Source: Prevotella sp. (GTDB taxonomy: Bacteria; Bacteroidota; Bacteroidia; Bacteroidales; Bacteroidaceae). From it: a stretch of DNA of 57,181 nt. Shown here piece by piece: positions 8,816 through 40,911 of this stretch (within the stretch, counting starts at the first letter, position 1; each line of letters starts with the position of its first letter). The notes under the pieces were generated by a model. The model was not told the origin of the DNA. It worked only from the letters and a program-made list of their open reading frames with translations, and did not search any database. Location of the stretch: positions 1 to 57,181 of the forward strand of contig JAFULM010000004.1 in assembly GCA_017483185.1 (NCBI GenBank), in the 5' to 3' direction. A program made the translations under genes and the position numbers.

Positions 8816-9841
8816 ATGGCTAACAACGTTTTTGTATATTGCGAAATAGAGGGCACTCAGGTACAGGAAGTATCACAGGAGTTGCTCACAAAGGGCCGCA
8901 AGCTGGCCAATGAACTCGGCGTGGAGCTGCACGCCATCGTTGCCGGAACGGGCATCAAGGGCGCCGTGGAAGAGCAGATTTTGCCTTACGGCGTTGACAA
9001 GCTGTTCGTCTTCGACGGCGAAGGCCTGTTCCCATACACGTCGGCTCCCCACACGGAGATTCTCGTCAACCTCTTCAAGGAGGAGCAGCCGCAGATCTGT
9101 CTGATGGGTGCCACGGTAATCGGACGCGACCTCGGACCGCGCGTGTCGTCCTCGCTGACCAGCGGACTGACTGCCGACTGTACACAGCTGGAAATCGGCG
9201 ACTACGACGACAAGAAGTCCGGCAAGCACTATGAGGGTCTGCTCTATCAGATCCGTCCGGCTTTCGGCGGCAACATCGTCGCAACGATTGTCAATCCCGA
9301 CCACCGTCCGCAGATGGCGACGGTACGCTCCGGCGTGATGCAGAAGGCCGTCTACGAGGGCGAAAGCCGCAAGGAAGTGGTCTATCCCGAGGTGTCTAAG
9401 TACGTAAGCGCAGAAGCATATATCGTCAAGGTGCTCGACCGTCAGGTGGAGGAAGCCAAGCACAACCTGAAAGGTGCCCCCATCGTCGTTGCCGGTGGCT
9501 ACGGCGTGGGCTCTAAGGAAGGCTTCGACCTGCTCTTCAAGCTGGCCAAGGAACTTCACGGAGAGGTCGGCGCAAGCCGCGCCGCCGTGGATGCAGGCTG
9601 GGTTGACCACGACCGACAGATCGGTCAGACGGGCGTCACGGTCCATCCGAAGGTATATATCGCCTGCGGCATCAGCGGACAGATACAGCACATCGCCGGT
9701 ATGCAGGACTCCGGTATCATCATCTCCGTGAACAGCGACCCGGAAGCTCCTATCAACAAGATTGCCGACTACGTCATCGTGGGCACGGTTGAGGAGGTTG
9801 TGCCGAAATTGATTAAGTATTACAAGCAGAACAGTAAGTAA
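8816..9841 (+). CDS. etfA: Electron transfer flavoprotein subunit alpha
   Basis: 341 residues, normal length. The N-terminal half is the adenine-nucleotide alpha-hydrolase-like domain. The C-terminal FAD domain (about residues 200-341) carries VVAGGYGVGSKEGF, GQTGVTVHPKVYIACGISG near 270-288 and ISVNSDPEAPI, all diagnostic of EtfA. There is no N-terminal ferredoxin domain, unlike some bifurcating forms. It lies 9 nt after etfB and 3 nt before the dehydrogenase, so the three products are surely made together. Confidence 0.96.
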   Translation: MANNVFVYCEIEGTQVQEVSQELLTKGRKLANELGVELHAIVAGTGIKGAVEEQILPYGVDKLFVFDGEGLFPYTSAPHTEILVNLFKEEQPQICLMGATVIGRDLGPRVSSSLTSGLTADCTQLEIGDYDDKKSGKHYEGLLYQIRPAFGGNIVATIVNPDHRPQMATVRSGVMQKAVYEGESRKEVVYPEVSKYVSAEAYIVKVLDRQVEEAKHNLKGAPIVVAGGYGVGSKEGFDLLFKLAKELHGEVGASRAAVDAGWVDHDRQIGQTGVTVHPKVYIACGISGQIQHIAGMQDSGIIISVNSDPEAPINKIADYVIVGTVEEVVPKLIKYYKQNSK

Positions 9842-18476: not shown

Positions 18477-20678
18477 ATGGGAAAGAAAAAAGGAGGCAAA
18501 CTGCTGTCTAAAAATCAGGTCGGCGAAGCGTTGCTGAAGTTCTTTCAGTCACGTCCGAACGAGACTTTCAGTTTCAAACAGATATTCAAGGCTCTCAAAT
18601 TCACCACTCATCCGCTCAAGATGCTGGCCATCGACACGATGGAGGAGATGGCGTGGGACGACTTCCTGACGCGCGTGAGCGACAACAGCTATCGTCTGAA
18701 CACGGCCACACAGATACAGGAGGGCATCTTCCGCCGCAAGGCGAACGGCAAAAACAGCTTCATCCCTGCCGACGGCACGCTGCCGGTCTTTGTCGCCGAA
18801 CGCAACTCGATGTGGGCGCTCGACGGCGACCGCGTGCAGGTGACGTTCATGGCACGCCGCCAGAAGCACATCCGTGAGGCGATGGTGACAGCCATCATCA
18901 AGCGCGCCCACGACACGATGGTCGGCAAACTGCGCGTGGAGGACGACATGGCCTTCCTCGTGACACAGTCCAACATCTTCGCCAACGACATCATCATACC
19001 GCAAAACAAGCTCAAGGGCGGCAAGACCGGCCAGAAGGCCGTCGTCCGCGTCATCCGCTGGCCGGACGAAAACCATCGCAACATCATCGGCGAGGTCATC
19101 GACGTCTTGGGCGAACAGGGAGACAACGACGTCGAGATGCACGCCATCCTGGCCCAATACGGACTGCCGTATCGCTATCCGAAGGAGGTCGAAGAGGCCG
19201 CGGAGAAGATTTCGGCCGACATCACGCCGGAGGACATCGCCGAGCGCGAGGACTTCCGCGACGTCTTCACGTGCACCATCGACCCGCATGACGCCAAAGA
19301 CTTCGACGACGCGCTGTCGATAAGGAAGACGGAGACTGACGGTCTCTGGGAGGTCGGCGTCCATATCGCCGACGTGTCCCACTATGTCACCGAGGGTTCC
19401 GTCATCGACAAGGAGGCCGTCAAGCGCGCCACGAGTGTCTATCTCGTCGACCGCACCATACCGATGTTGCCCGAACGGCTCTGCAATTTCATCTGCTCGT
19501 TGCGCCCCGACGAGGAGAAACTGGCATACAGCGTGATATTCGAGATGGACGAAGAGGGCGAGATCAAAAACTGGCATCTGGCCCACACTGTCATCAAGAG
19601 CAACCGACGCTACGCCTACGAGGAGGTACAGACCATTCTCGAGCAGAACGGAGTGAAGGACGGAACGGGCCAACCCGCACCCGCTCCTGGACCGGACGGA
19701 TATGTCGGCGACAACGCTGCGGAGCTGATTCAGCTGGACCGATTGGCCAAGAAGCTGCGCGCGGCGAGGTTCCGGAACGGCGCGGTCAAGTTCGACCGCG
19801 AGGAACTGCGCTTCGACATCGACGAGAAGGGCAAACCCACGCGCTGCTACTTCAAGAAGTCGAAGGACGCCAACAAGCTCATCGAGGAGTTCATGCTTCT
19901 GGCCAACCGCACCGTCGCCGAAAGCATAGGCCGCGTCAAGAAGGGACAGAAGGCGAAGACCCTGCCCTACCGCATCCACGACCAGCCGGACCCGACGAAG
20001 CTCGAGACACTGCGCTCGTTTGTCGTCAAGTTCGGATATAAGATGAAGACGGCGGGCACGCGCGGTGCCATATCGAAGAGTCTCAACACTCTGCTTGACG
20101 AGTGCGCCGGACGAAACGAGCAGAAGCTCATCGAGACAGTGGCCCTCCGGGCGATGATGAAGGCGAAATACAGCATCCACAACATCGGCCACTACGGTCT
20201 GGCGTTCGACTATTACACCCACTTCACCTCGCCCATCCGCCGCTATCCCGACACGATGGTCCACCGTCTGCTCACCCGCTATCAGCAAGGCGGACGCTCG
20301 GCCAACAAGGACCACTACGAGGAGCTTTGCGAACACAGCAGCGAGATGGAGCAGATTGCTCAGAACGCCGAACGCGACTCCATCAAGTATAAGATGGTGG
20401 AGTTCATGTCCGACAAGCTGGGCGAGGTCTTCGACGCCCACATCAGCGGCATCCAGAGCTACGGCATCTACTGCGAGATCGACGAAAACCACTGCGAGGG
20501 CATGGTGTCACTCCACGATCTGGACGACGACTACTACGACTTTGACGAAAAGAACTACTGCCTCGTCGGACGCCGTCACCACAACAAATATCAGTTGGGC
20601 GACCCCGTGCGCATCCAGGTGGCCAAAGCCAACATCGAGAAGAAGCAGCTCGACTTCGTCATCGCCAAAACATGTTAG
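18477..20678 (+). CDS. rnr: Ribonuclease R (RNB family 3'-5' exoribonuclease)
   Basis: 733 residues from ATG 18477 (MGKKKGGKLLSK). An earlier in-frame start at 18369 lies inside the REP-like repeat and is rejected. Order of parts: a winged-helix-like region (about 10-75), cold-shock domains (about 85-240), the RNB catalytic domain with DPHDAKDFDDALS at about 266-278 holding the metal-binding aspartates, and a C-terminal S1 domain (about 640-725, KLGEVFDAHISGIQSYG). It degrades structured RNA. The stop codon merges with a heptanucleotide repeat that follows directly. Confidence 0.95.
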   Translation: MGKKKGGKLLSKNQVGEALLKFFQSRPNETFSFKQIFKALKFTTHPLKMLAIDTMEEMAWDDFLTRVSDNSYRLNTATQIQEGIFRRKANGKNSFIPADGTLPVFVAERNSMWALDGDRVQVTFMARRQKHIREAMVTAIIKRAHDTMVGKLRVEDDMAFLVTQSNIFANDIIIPQNKLKGGKTGQKAVVRVIRWPDENHRNIIGEVIDVLGEQGDNDVEMHAILAQYGLPYRYPKEVEEAAEKISADITPEDIAEREDFRDVFTCTIDPHDAKDFDDALSIRKTETDGLWEVGVHIADVSHYVTEGSVIDKEAVKRATSVYLVDRTIPMLPERLCNFICSLRPDEEKLAYSVIFEMDEEGEIKNWHLAHTVIKSNRRYAYEEVQTILEQNGVKDGTGQPAPAPGPDGYVGDNAAELIQLDRLAKKLRAARFRNGAVKFDREELRFDIDEKGKPTRCYFKKSKDANKLIEEFMLLANRTVAESIGRVKKGQKAKTLPYRIHDQPDPTKLETLRSFVVKFGYKMKTAGTRGAISKSLNTLLDECAGRNEQKLIETVALRAMMKAKYSIHNIGHYGLAFDYYTHFTSPIRRYPDTMVHRLLTRYQQGGRSANKDHYEELCEHSSEMEQIAQNAERDSIKYKMVEFMSDKLGEVFDAHISGIQSYGIYCEIDENHCEGMVSLHDLDDDYYDFDEKNYCLVGRRHHNKYQLGDPVRIQVAKANIEKKQLDFVIAKTC

Positions 20679-20855
20679 ATGGTAGATGTCAGATGGTAAA
20701 TGTTAGATGTCAGATGTTAAATGGTAGATGTCAGATGGAAATGTTAGATATTACCGGCCCTTTGCTGCCTAACATCTGACATCTGACATCTGACATCTAA
20801 CATCTAACATCTAACATTTAACATCTACCATTTACCATCTAACATTTACCATCTC
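20676..20855. repeat. Heptanucleotide repeat forming a long palindrome
   Basis: From the rnr stop codon on, about ten 7-nt units of the type ATGTYAG/ATGGTAR follow (to about 20748). After a 20-nt spacer, about twelve complementary units of the type CATCTRA/CATYTAC run from 20769 to 20855. The arms can pair in many registers. It is non-coding and forms one large hairpin downstream of rnr. Confidence 0.85.
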
Positions 20856-20920
20856 CCGTGTCATTATAATATCAAATATTTAACATTTCAAAAATCGCGA
20901 AAAAAGCGAAAAAACAACCT

Positions 20921-21331: not shown

Positions 21332-21362
21332 TTTGTTTTTACAAAATAAATGTGTAATTTTG
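21332..21362 (+). promoter_or_regulatory. Promoter of the STAS/HATPase-DUF4325-PIN cassette
   Basis: TTTG (21332-21335), a 19-nt spacer and TAATTTTG (21355-21362) match the Bacteroidetes consensus well. The predicted transcription start near 21369 leaves only about seven nucleotides before ATG 21376, so the first gene is almost leaderless. Confidence 0.75.
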
Positions 21363-21375
21363 CGTATATAATATT

Positions 21376-22272
21376 ATGTCCGAAGAAGTATTCATCTCAC
21401 AATATGTCACTGCCAACAAGACGGGCTACGAGTTCTTATCAGAATTCTACGAGTCAACAATGCAGACCGACTCCGAAAAAATCTATGTAGATTTCACATG
21501 GTGCAAGGAATTTGATGCAAATCTTTCCGCCGTCATGGGAGCTTTTTTGGACAAGCTGGCATACGACGGACACAACATATTCCTCAGGAGCCCCAAGTCT
21601 CCGGGAGTGAGACGGGCACTGTCAAGAAACAAATTTTTCAAGGCTTTCGACCTTGAGACAAAATATGAAGACCGTGAGAACTATATCGAATACCGGCGGT
21701 TTGGTGTGTCCGACACTTCGGCCTTCAAAGAGTATATCGGCACGGAACTCATACAGAAAAAGCGGTTTCCAAAGTGTTCGGAAAAGGCGAAATCGAAGAT
21801 TATCGAAAGTATATATGAGATCTTTGCCAATGCCGTCAGCCACGGCGGATGCAACAACGTCTACTGTTGTGGAGAAGTGCACACACGGGACGGCCGGACA
21901 ATGCTTGACCTGACTTTCGTAAACCTTGGTAGGTCTATCGTGGAAAACGTCAACAAATTCCTGATGGGCAAAGGAGCTGCTCCAATGAGCTCTTGTGAGA
22001 CACTGGAATGGGCTTTTGTCGAAGGAAACACGACCAAATCGATACCGGGAGGACTGGGACTGGCCATACTGAAAGAGTTTGTCGAAATGAATGACGGGAC
22101 AATACAGATGATATCAGGAGACGCCATGTTGGAGATAAAAGGCAAAGTCCCTACCGACACCGTCTTGAGCAAATGGTTTCCCGGCACGATAGTCACCGTA
22201 GAGTTCAACTGCGATGATGAGAAAGAATATATGCTGACGGACGAAGTTCCCGACAAAGACAACCTGTTTTAA
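21376..22272 (+). CDS. STAS-like/HATPase protein (GHKL ATP-binding)
   Basis: 298 residues, first gene of a three-gene cassette. Residues about 1-115 look like a STAS-type fold (DFTWCKEFDANLSAVMGAFL, then RSPKSPGVRRAL). Residues about 135-280 form an HATPase domain: the N box EIFANAVSHGG (E148, N152) and the lid motif PGGLGLAILKEFVEMNDG (224-241). The G1 box reads FVNLGRSI (182-189), so the usual ATP-contacting aspartate of DxGxG appears replaced by asparagine. No dimerisation/phosphorylation histidine domain is present, so this is not a sensor kinase; it is closest in layout to anti-sigma-factor kinases of the SpoIIAB/RsbW kind (inference). The next gene begins 21 nt downstream. Function unknown. 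Confidence 0.8.
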   Translation: MSEEVFISQYVTANKTGYEFLSEFYESTMQTDSEKIYVDFTWCKEFDANLSAVMGAFLDKLAYDGHNIFLRSPKSPGVRRALSRNKFFKAFDLETKYEDRENYIEYRRFGVSDTSAFKEYIGTELIQKKRFPKCSEKAKSKIIESIYEIFANAVSHGGCNNVYCCGEVHTRDGRTMLDLTFVNLGRSIVENVNKFLMGKGAAPMSSCETLEWAFVEGNTTKSIPGGLGLAILKEFVEMNDGTIQMISGDAMLEIKGKVPTDTVLSKWFPGTIVTVEFNCDDEKEYMLTDEVPDKDNLF

Positions 22273-22293
22273 GAACAACCTATACTTACGCTT

Positions 22294-22641
22294 ATGACCA
22301 AGATTGAAATAAACAAATTCATATCCCTCAACCAGGGAATAACCTCTGAGGAGGGACAACCCATCTACGAGAAAATCATGGACTGCCTTTCCAGGCAGGA
22401 GGATGTGACACTCGATTTCGATGGTGTGATGTTTCTGACCACAGCATTTCTCAATGTGGCCATCGGCACCCTATACAAAGACTACACCGGAGAACAGTTG
22501 CAGGCAAAGCTCCACATCGTCAACGCCAACGACGAAACAAAAGCCCGCATCAAGAAAGTGACGGACAACGCCAAAGCGTTCTACAATAACGAGGCGGAAT
22601 TTAATCAAACGGTTGAGGAGGTTCTCAATGGCAACATGTAA
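22294..22641 (+). CDS. STAS-like domain protein (DUF4325 type)
   Basis: 115 residues, one domain. VTLDFDGVMFLTTAFLNVAI (38-57) corresponds to the STAS/DUF4325 core strand and helix start, where anti-anti-sigma factors carry the Ser or Thr that is phosphorylated by their partner kinase; T49 and T50 are the candidates here. The C-terminal half (LHIVNANDETKARIKKV) continues the fold. It lies between an HATPase and a PIN nuclease gene, 21 nt after the first and overlapping the second by 14 nt, so translation is likely coupled. I infer that it is the switch partner of the upstream HATPase. Family assignment is from pattern memory. Confidence 0.78.
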   Translation: MTKIEINKFISLNQGITSEEGQPIYEKIMDCLSRQEDVTLDFDGVMFLTTAFLNVAIGTLYKDYTGEQLQAKLHIVNANDETKARIKKVTDNAKAFYNNEAEFNQTVEEVLNGNM

Positions 22642-23167
22642 AATTGCGAAGCACGAGGTATCACCCACTTACAGCTACATCTTCGACACAAACGTCTGGA
22701 TTTACATCTTTGCCCCCATCGCCGGAGTAAAACCACATAAGCAAAAAGAATACAGCCAACTGCTGAAAGACATCCGTTCAAGAGAAGCAACCATCTGGAT
22801 CAGTTCGCTCATCGTGTCCGAATATGTCAATGCAGTGCTCAGAATAGCCTTCAAACAATGGATGCACAGCAACAAACTATACACCGCGGACTTCAAGCAT
22901 GACTTTCGACCGACAGCAGAATACAAGGCAGCTCTCTCCGATGCCAAACTTCAAGTAAACGCGATACTTGGTATATGCGAACGCCGACCGGACGATTTCA
23001 ATCACATAGACGTCGGCAACATCATCGCTTCGATGAATACAACATCTTATGATTTTGGTGACGCAATGATTGCAAATGTATGCGAACGCAACAAAGAGAT
23101 ACATCTCGTCACCGATGACACTGACATCACTATGGCGGAAGTGCCTTTCAACGTCATCACGGCTTGA
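22628..23167 (+). CDS. PIN-domain protein (putative ribonuclease)
   Basis: 179 residues from ATG 22628, which follows a GAGGAGG Shine-Dalgarno-like sequence (22615-22621) by 6 nt; a TTG at 22613 would extend it by five residues and is less likely. The PIN acidic set is visible: D20 in YIFDTNVW, E65 in IVSEYVNA, D145 in FGDAMIAN, and D163/D164/D166 in VTDDTD. These coordinate the metal in VapC-type and rRNA-processing PIN nucleases, so activity is expected. No VapB-like antitoxin precedes it; instead the overlap with the STAS-like gene suggests control by that protein or by the HATPase (inference). It ends the cassette; no strong terminator is visible after it. Confidence 0.85.
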   Translation: MATCKIAKHEVSPTYSYIFDTNVWIYIFAPIAGVKPHKQKEYSQLLKDIRSREATIWISSLIVSEYVNAVLRIAFKQWMHSNKLYTADFKHDFRPTAEYKAALSDAKLQVNAILGICERRPDDFNHIDVGNIIASMNTTSYDFGDAMIANVCERNKEIHLVTDDTDITMAEVPFNVITA

Positions 23168-40101: not shown

Positions 40102-40911
40102 ATGGCAAAAATAAAAGTACAAGATACAGAAATAACTATCGTAACATACAACGAAAAAGACTATATATCTCTTACTGACATGGTAAGAAATATAGAAAAT
40201 GGGCTTGCACTCATTGAAAAATGGTTACGCAACAAAAACACTATCGAATTTCTAGGGATATGGGAAGAGATGTACAATCCCGATTTTAATTCCCCCGAAT
40301 TCGAGGGAATTAAAAATGAAGCAGGATTGAATCGATTCGTGCTTTCCGTAAAGCAATGGGTAGAAAAGACCAACTCACGGGGAATTATTGCCAAAGCCGG
40401 CCGCTATGGAGGCACATACGCGCATAAAGACATTGCATTCGAGTTTGCCAGTTGGGTATCCCCACAATTCAAACTTTACCTACTAAAAGAGTTTCAACGT
40501 CTAAAAGAAGAAGAACAAACACAAATCGGCTGGTCTGCCAAGCGCGAACTTTCGAAAATAAATTACCATATACACACCAACGCAATCAAGCAAAATCTTA
40601 TTCCCTCAAAAGTCACCCCCGCACAGATTTGTATCATCTATGCCAACGAAGCCGATGTTCTGAACGTGGCTCTGTTTGGAATGACAGCAAAACAATGGCG
40701 CGAAAACAATTCCGATTACAAAGGAAATATTCGCGACTATGCCACCATCAACGAACTTATTTGCCTGTCGAACATGGAAAGCCTCAATGCAGTGTTCATC
40801 GAACAAGGCATGCCGCAGAGCGAACGACTCATCAAACTTAACCAGATTGCCATACAACAAATGAGCATATTAGAAAGCCCCGACAACGGAGAAAGGAAAC
40901 TTTTAAAATAA
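40102..40911 (+). CDS. KilA-N domain protein
   Basis: 269 residues from ATG 40102. The N-terminal KilA-N domain is clear: YNEKDYISLTDMVRN, LIEKWLRNKNTIEFLGIWE, then KAGRYGGTYAHKDIAFEFAS and FKLYLLKEFQRLKEEE. KilA-N is a DNA-binding fold spread by phages and large DNA viruses. The C-terminal half (about 155-269, KINYHIHTNAIKQNLIP) is a conserved helical part of chromosomal relatives, of unknown function. The gene is visibly more AT-rich than its neighbours and stands alone between a repeat-rich gap and a sulfatase gene, suggesting acquisition by transfer. No other phage gene is near. Confidence 0.9.
   Translation: MAKIKVQDTEITIVTYNEKDYISLTDMVRNIENGLALIEKWLRNKNTIEFLGIWEEMYNPDFNSPEFEGIKNEAGLNRFVLSVKQWVEKTNSRGIIAKAGRYGGTYAHKDIAFEFASWVSPQFKLYLLKEFQRLKEEEQTQIGWSAKRELSKINYHIHTNAIKQNLIPSKVTPAQICIIYANEADVLNVALFGMTAKQWRENNSDYKGNIRDYATINELICLSNMESLNAVFIEQGMPQSERLIKLNQIAIQQMSILESPDNGERKLLK

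What the first reader, a model, noticed from the sequence alone, without database searches (positions are those of the whole stretch)
21332..23167. Three-gene cassette: STAS/HATPase protein, small STAS-like (DUF4325-type) protein and PIN nuclease
Seen: one good promoter almost abutting the first ATG, gaps of 21 nt and a 14-nt overlap, and no other gene between. The first protein has an HATPase N box (EIFANAVSHGG) and lid (GGLGLA) but an altered G1 box and no histidine-phosphorylation domain; the second has a STAS-like core with Thr49/Thr50; the third has the complete acidic set of a PIN nuclease. Known: SpoIIAB/RsbW kinases phosphorylate STAS partners on Ser/Thr to switch their binding. Inference: a partner-switching module that gates an RNA-cleaving toxin instead of a sigma factor, perhaps a stress or phage-defence device. 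I know of no named system of this composition.
Basis: partly seen in the sequence, partly recalled or inferred. Interest (0 to 1): 0.85.

Follow-up and report, generated by a model that had tools for sequence, protein, structure and literature searches.

The report
A vapKSC kinase-controlled toxin operon
Three adjacent genes form a recently published kind of bacterial toxin alarm, in which a kinase is thought to release an RNA-cutting toxin from its inhibitor; this copy is an ordinary new member, but in two related operons from other bacteria the same switch sits beside a different antiviral enzyme.

Summary
In detail: window 21376-23167 holds three intact, co-directional genes for a GHKL kinase, a DUF4325 STAS-like protein and a PIN nuclease behind a Bacteroidetes-type promoter. 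The inference is largely right too, but the system has a name: vapKSC (Chambers et al., EMBO J, June 2026, PMC13373217). Profiles that include the window proteins match the solved Escherichia VapS (1.1e-23) and VapC (2.4e-12) of PDB 9z7o. Thr50 aligns with the published phospho-switch VapS Ser48 and is Ser/Thr in 95 of 96 homologues; Thr49 is not conserved. Of 80 GTDB kinase loci kept, 69 are kinase-STAS-PIN, 5 are cut by a contig end, 4 are lone kinases, and 2 (Mesoflavibacter, Dokdonia) have kinase and STAS behind an anti-phage dCTP deaminase, without PIN. There VapS lacks the stretch that in VapKSC inhibits the toxin. The paper's main text does not hold the word deaminase. The window cassette is a new member of a known kind; the effector swap in relatives is the fresh lead.

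The parts
21332..21362 (+). Bacteroidetes-type promoter TTTG-N19-TAATTTTG, 13 nt before the first ATG
   Evidence: 6 sites in the window, 0.39 expected; consensus recalled
21376..22272 (+). vapK: STAS-like N-terminal part (about 1-110, weak evidence) and GHKL kinase (N box E148/N152/H156, lid GGLGL); Asn183 in place of the usual G1 Asp
22294..22641 (+). vapS: DUF4325 STAS-like antitoxin; Thr50 = Escherichia VapS Ser48; C-terminal tail residues 94-115
22628..23167 (+). vapC: PIN-domain ribonuclease toxin; D20 (= Escherichia VapC D28), E65, D142, D145, D164, D166; overlaps vapS by 14 nt

Best explanation
The cassette is a vapKSC operon. At rest the STAS protein VapS binds the PIN RNase VapC and its C-terminal tail blocks the active site. 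When DNA damage or phage infection produces single-stranded DNA, VapK is activated and phosphorylates VapS on Thr50; VapS lets go, and freed VapC cleaves RNA and stops growth before the phage can finish. Shown here: homology, gene order, co-divergence and conservation of the catalytic and switch residues. Shown in print for the Escherichia system: VapC toxicity, its suppression by VapS, failure of the phosphomimic and of tail-less VapS, and phage protection that is lost on mutating any one of the three proteins. Inferred by transfer: every functional step for the window's own proteins, including ssDNA sensing, which was not shown directly even for Escherichia VapK.
For: The 14 strong kinase homologues in 393 genomes of the order carry the DUF4325 and PIN genes downstream on the same strand. 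In the GTDB scan 69 of 80 loci kept (of 82 found) are K-S-C. All 101 complete triads counted, duplicates between scans not removed, are on one strand, median gaps 9 and -11 nt. The three proteins co-diverge: Mantel r 0.89, 0.88, 0.86 over 83 dereplicated loci, 0 of 1000 permutations as high. Profiles A2 and A3, which include the window proteins, match Escherichia VapS (1.1e-23) and VapC (2.4e-12) of PDB 9z7o; the window PIN alone matches VapC at 0.0018. Thr50 aligns with VapS Ser48 and is Ser/Thr in 95 of 96; E148, N152, H156, G185, G226, G228 are invariant in 106 of 106. Published function of vapKSC. Patchy distribution: 1 of 100 genomes of the genus, the window's own.
Against: The window's VapK has Asn for the G1 Asp (99 of 106 have Asp), which may weaken ATP binding. 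The N-terminal STAS assignment is weak by sequence: Pfam STAS in 3 and STAS_2 in 1 of 71 members, best solved STAS match E=0.054, hhalign with VapS probability 5%. The published ssDNA-contact residue F54 could not be mapped. The genes around the cassette in the window were listed but not scanned as a set for defence genes. No function was measured here.
Confidence: 0.93

Rival explanations
1. The kinase has lost ATP-dependent activity (G1 Asp to Asn) and the locus now works as a plain type II toxin-antitoxin pair, VapS-VapC, held on the chromosome by addiction.
For: Asn183 in the window protein; Asp in 99 of 106 homologues. The four lone Ancylomarina kinases also lack the Asp (3 Asn, 1 Ser). 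The cassette is a singleton among 100 genomes of its genus.
Against: The other motif residues (E148, N152, H156, glycines) are intact and the reading frame is open. Asn also occurs in two Clostridia loci that keep the whole triad (L054, L088).
Confidence: 0.1
2. A general DNA-damage or stress dormancy switch rather than a phage-defence system; phage protection is incidental.
For: The authors themselves call the line between immune and stress pathways fuzzy and name DNA damage as the signal. The window cassette sits among chromosomal genes (gene list).
Against: Published about 2-log protection against phage Bas42, lost on mutating any of the three proteins; patchy distribution; hand-picked triads beside restriction, Hma or Pgl genes (5 of 6 long neighbours scanned match PADLOC, that of L174 does not).
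Confidence: 0.25
3. A classical anti-sigma-factor partner switch (SpoIIAB/SpoIIAA type) with an unrelated PIN gene downstream.
For: GHKL plus STAS-like protein, Ser/Thr at the switch position.
Against: The PIN gene is conserved in place in 69 of 80 loci and co-diverges with both others; in the solved Escherichia complex the STAS protein binds the PIN protein.
Confidence: 0.02

Closest known systems
VapKSC of Escherichia sp. E4736 (Chambers et al., EMBO J 2026, PMC13373217; VapS-VapC structure PDB 9z7o)
   Same: Same three genes in the same order; VapS and VapC homologous to the solved chains; Ser48/Thr50 and Asp28/Asp20 correspond (positions by counting in the printed alignments)
   Different: Distant in sequence; the window VapK has Asn for the G1 Asp; the function of this copy is untested
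CapK + CapS (same paper)
   Same: GHKL kinase that phosphorylates a STAS partner after DNA damage
   Different: CapK has an N-terminal HTH and CapS a C-terminal winged HTH, acting on transcription; here Pfam finds no HTH and the third gene is a toxin
SpoIIAB/SpoIIAA and RsbW/RsbV (recalled, and as cited in the paper)
   Same: GHKL Ser/Thr kinase and STAS antagonist logic
   Different: Their target is a sigma factor; here it is a PIN nuclease
VapBC type II toxin-antitoxin
   Same: PIN RNase toxin
   Different: The antitoxin is a DUF4325/STAS protein controlled by phosphorylation, not VapB
AvcID / anti-phage dCTP deaminase (PMC10511110, abstract and passages seen)
   Same: The Mesoflavibacter and Dokdonia variant carries this deaminase kind (PADLOC dCTPase, 1.3e-114 and 9.3e-120)
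   Different: In AvcID the inhibitor is an RNA lost on transcription shut-off; here VapK-VapS is the candidate regulator; not part of the window locus

Membership tests
VapKSC | Operon order kinase - STAS protein - PIN protein on one strand | tested here: met
   conserved in 69 of 80 GTDB loci, 5 of the other 11 cut by a contig end
VapKSC | VapK has a GHKL kinase domain and no N-terminal HTH | tested here: met
   HATPase_c 0.0012 in the window protein (below the Pfam cut-off), HATPase_c in 44 of 71 members; no HTH match in the window protein
VapKSC | VapK has an N-terminal STAS domain | tested here: inconclusive
   STAS in 3 and STAS_2 in 1 of 71 members; TM1442 STAS at E=0.054; hhalign with VapS 5% probability
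VapKSC | Conserved aromatic ssDNA-contact residue of VapK (F54 in Escherichia) | tested here: inconclusive
   No Escherichia VapK sequence was at hand; F46 is a candidate (Phe in 71 and Tyr in 1 of 106 rows), equivalence not shown
VapKSC | VapS homologous to Escherichia VapS | tested here: met
   Profile A2, which includes the window protein, against 9z7o chain A, E=1.1e-23
VapKSC | Absolutely conserved Ser/Thr of VapS (Ser48) | tested here: met
   Thr50 aligns with it; Ser/Thr in 95 of 96
VapKSC | C-terminal VapS region after the STAS domain that inhibits VapC | tested here: met
   Residues 94-115 present in the window protein; median 21 residues after A93 in 90 triad VapS; presence only, function not tested
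VapKSC | VapC PIN domain with catalytic acids | tested here: met
   9z7o chain C matched at 2.4e-12 by the profile and 0.0018 by the window protein alone; acids invariant where aligned
VapKSC | VapC toxic, VapS antitoxin, phosphomimic inactive, phage protection, ssDNA activation | not testable with these tools
   Published for Escherichia except direct ssDNA activation of VapK
Anti-sigma-factor partner switch (SpoIIAB/RsbW) | The output is a sigma factor | tested here: not met
   The conserved third gene is a PIN protein; no sigma-factor match among the three proteins
VapBC | VapB antitoxin gene next to the PIN gene | tested here: not met
   The partner is DUF4325/STAS

The most novel reading that the evidence does not exclude
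VapK-VapS is an exchangeable phospho-switch that has been unplugged from the PIN toxin and re-plugged onto an anti-phage dCTP deaminase. In Mesoflavibacter and Dokdonia the operon is deaminase-vapK-vapS, the PIN gene is gone, and VapS has lost the tail that inhibits VapC while keeping its switch Thr. Phosphorylation of VapS would then release a nucleotide-depleting enzyme instead of an RNase: control by a protein and a kinase in place of the AvcI RNA known for this kind of deaminase.
Probability: 0.55. Interest if true: 0.6.

Novelty: new member of a known kind. Interest (0 to 1): 0.35.

Why it matters
The window cassette adds a member in Bacteroidales (order inferred from a kin locus identical to a named Bacteroidales contig) to a newly published immune toxin-antitoxin system, and ties Pfam DUF4325, still listed as a domain of unknown function, to a phospho-switched antitoxin. 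The survey suggests that the kinase-STAS pair is portable: besides PIN RNases it occurs with a dCTP deaminase and, in more distant relatives, beside HipA-like and PIN_8 proteins. One sensor-switch driving different effectors would let new effectors be predicted from the switch genes alone.

Tried and rejected
Rejected: an unnamed system (paper found); a sigma-factor switch; Thr49 as the phospho-site. DUF4325 alone is not diagnostic: 63 of 392 genomes of the phylum have it. I read 60 of the 71 places listed there (the window's own and the 10 weakest left out): 17 are K-S-C on one strand, 12 K-S, 21 K only (mostly one-chain fusions), 5 S only, 1 K-C, 4 none, at E<=0.01.

Led nowhere: an empty-site comparison in the genus. 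The next gene (RluA-like) lies on another contig than rnr or far from it in most of the congeners listed; in G1142 they are about 7 kb apart, not pursued. Plasmid searches with the window VapS (none) and Escherichia VapS (only the Deinococcus plasmid already found). More deaminase-linked copies: none in phage records or viral contigs (close relatives only), none at 5 other deaminase loci of Bacteroidota, whose flanks are short (loci of 4.2-4.8 kb), none annotated in the 3 of 7 plasmid records that I looked at.

Flank test for defence genes: 120 of 156 picked proteins next to triads (33 of 44 loci) match 163 PADLOC families in all; 120 of 149 picked control proteins match 34, at E<=1e-20. Only suggestive: the tool counts families, not proteins; I trimmed both lists by hand to fit the residue cap; and the cut left case and control loci from different sets of genomes.

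Literature searches. Of the 20 papers listed of 977, only PMC13373217 holds the word VapKSC. For a deaminase joined to a STAS/GHKL pair searches found no paper, and none of the 20 listed of 193 holds the deaminase term. Most subscription journals and bioRxiv preprints are outside the library, and the paper's datasets were not read, so absence from print is not shown.

Full report
What is there. Three intact co-directional genes lie at 21376-22272, 22294-22641 and 22628-23167, with a 21-nt gap and a 14-nt overlap. They encode a GHKL-type ATPase, a DUF4325 STAS-like protein and a PIN protein. No PADLOC model matches any of them. A Bacteroidetes-type promoter (consensus recalled) ends 13 nt before the first ATG; six such sites occur in the window against 0.39 expected. 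The cassette is AT-richer than most neighbouring genes (about 40-48% against 56-63% G+C), though some nearby stretches are as low. The kinase gene is found in 1 of 100 genomes of the genus, the window's own, and strong homologues in 14 of 393 genomes of the order, own included. This points to horizontal gain; no insertion boundary was found.

Conservation. In the order scan 20 of 393 genomes had a match at E<=0.001. The 14 strong ones all carry the two partners in order on the same strand; one kinase has an in-frame stop (L003). Of the six weak ones, read in loci of 3.1-3.6 kb, two have a DUF4325 neighbour and none the triad. A scan of GTDB genomes gave 82 loci, of which the best 80 were kept, from Bacteroidota, Planctomycetota, Spirochaetota, Bacillota, Campylobacterota, Pseudomonadota and other phyla, a cyanobacterium and one archaeal MAG (many are MAG contigs, so single placements are unsure). 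Of these 80, 69 are K-S-C; 5 end at a contig end; 4, all Ancylomarina, are a kinase alone with full flanks; 2 carry kinase and STAS without PIN. L092 has its PIN gene and L096 its kinase in two frames; L093 and L094 are two contigs of one MAG. The scans overlap: 6 of 7 pairs compared are the same DNA, besides L004 and L026 (L012/L046 and L003/L061 are not). The three proteins co-diverge (Mantel r 0.86-0.89, 83 loci).

Identity of the system. Chambers, Rani, Min, Villa and Corbett (EMBO J, 9 June 2026, PMC13373217; I read the abstract, sections 7, 13, 14, 17 and passages) named this operon vapKSC. They report 289 copies, 36% within 10 kb of another immune gene, the crystal structure of the Escherichia VapS-VapC complex, VapC toxicity, its suppression by VapS, loss of suppression on deleting the VapS C-terminus or with S48E, and about 2-log protection against phage Bas42 that is lost on mutating VapC D28, VapS S48 or VapK F54. 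They could not test ssDNA activation of VapK. The profile of the window VapS and its relatives matches the solved VapS at 1.1e-23, that of VapC the solved VapC at 2.4e-12, and the window VapC alone at 0.0018.

Residues. Counting along the printed alignments, window Thr50 falls on Escherichia VapS Ser48 (chain residue 66, offset 18 inferred from the tag) and window Asp20 on VapC Asp28. Thr50 is Ser or Thr in 95 of 96 homologues; the exception, L171, has Asp, like the phosphomimic, and no kinase or PIN gene in the region read. Thr49 is not conserved. The PIN acids are invariant where aligned. Kinase residues E148, N152 and H156 are invariant in 106 of 106, but the G1 Asp is Asn in the window; activity of this VapK is therefore the least certain step.

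The effector swap. In Mesoflavibacter zeaxanthinifaciens (L031) and Dokdonia pacifica (L034) the order is deaminase-vapK-vapS with gaps of 18 and 27 nt, then 20 and 19 nt, and no PIN gene. The first protein matches PADLOC dCTPase at 1.3e-114 and 9.3e-120 and has HAE and PCxxC motifs (their meaning recalled). The tree, rooted at its midpoint, puts the two kinases together (100/99) and next to a PIN-linked kinase, L174 (100/98), in a set of 22 rows whose others are PIN-linked, except L102, which is cut by its contig end; so the deaminase form looks derived. The two VapS proteins end 9 and 11 residues after the A93 position; 90 triad VapS have a median of 21 and at least 15. The stretch lost corresponds to much of the tail that inhibits VapC. 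dN/dS between the two operons is low for all three genes (0.231/1.336, 0.103/1.354, 0.174/1.616; dS is near saturation). In Dokdonia the three genes lie between two 101-nt direct repeats, 93% alike, that hold tRNA-His, which could be the ends of a mobile unit; but the place is rich in tRNA genes (24 in the locus), so plain tRNA duplication is possible. Against the swap: only two loci, no further copy found, and no test of interaction.

Wider family. DUF4325 occurs in 63 of 392 genomes of the phylum; 17 of 60 regions read are K-S-C. Other neighbours of HATPase-DUF4325 pairs, in these regions and in the order scan, include a PIN_8 protein (L162) and a HipA-like protein (L017); L145, L150 and L151 are single-chain HTH-GHKL-DUF4325 proteins. 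Some hand-picked triads sit in or beside other defence genes: L169 between HmaA and HmaB, L139 after a PglX-like gene, L183 and L187 (distant members) beside type IIG and type III restriction genes; the long neighbour of L174 had no PADLOC match.

Verdict. The finding is real and was well read, but is already explained: a new member of a published system. Interest 0.35, mostly for the swap seen in relatives.

Noticed in passing
L031:5910-9181 and L034:5895-9174: Deaminase-vapK-vapS operons without a PIN gene; VapS lacks much of the C-terminal tail.
   Followed up: yes
L034:5670-5770 and 9251-9351: Two 101-nt direct repeats (93%) holding tRNA-His flank the deaminase-vapK-vapS operon in Dokdonia, inside a locus with 24 tRNA genes.
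   Followed up: partly
L031:9703-10254: C-terminal part of a DprA-like gene beside the Mesoflavibacter operon (Pfam DNA_processg_A and DprA_WH); the operon may have landed in dprA.
   Followed up: no
L162:2996-5258: PIN_8 protein, HATPase and DUF4325 in a row: possibly another PIN-STAS-GHKL module, with the PIN gene first.
   Followed up: partly
L017:1072-3345: HATPase, DUF4325 and a HipA-like kinase in a row, next to an ORF that looks like Cas9 (recalled).
   Followed up: partly
L145:4181-5194, L150:4241-5254, L151:4191-5228: Single-chain proteins with weak HTH, GHKL and clear DUF4325 matches, a one-protein look-alike of CapK plus CapS; long fused frames recur in one genus of the phylum survey.
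   Followed up: partly
L169:1-9150: A vapKSC triad lies between HmaA and HmaB genes of an Hma defence operon.
   Followed up: partly
L016:334-3116: HATPase and a long DUF4325 fusion lie between a type I methyltransferase gene and a frame that looks like a specificity gene (recalled).
   Followed up: partly
L097-L100:7998-8804: Four Ancylomarina genomes carry a lone VapK-like kinase without STAS or PIN gene; L097 and L100, the two whose neighbours I read, share the genes on both sides.
   Followed up: partly
L171:4976-5443: A VapS homologue without kinase or PIN beside it has Asp at the phospho-site and a short tail.
   Followed up: no
window 20672-20861: Arrays of 7-nt repeats (ATGTTAG / CTAACAT) form a 66-nt inverted repeat at and after the end of the rnr gene.
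   Followed up: no
window 40105-40908: A KilA-N domain protein (Pfam 4.2e-24), a phage-type domain (recalled), elsewhere in the window.
   Followed up: no
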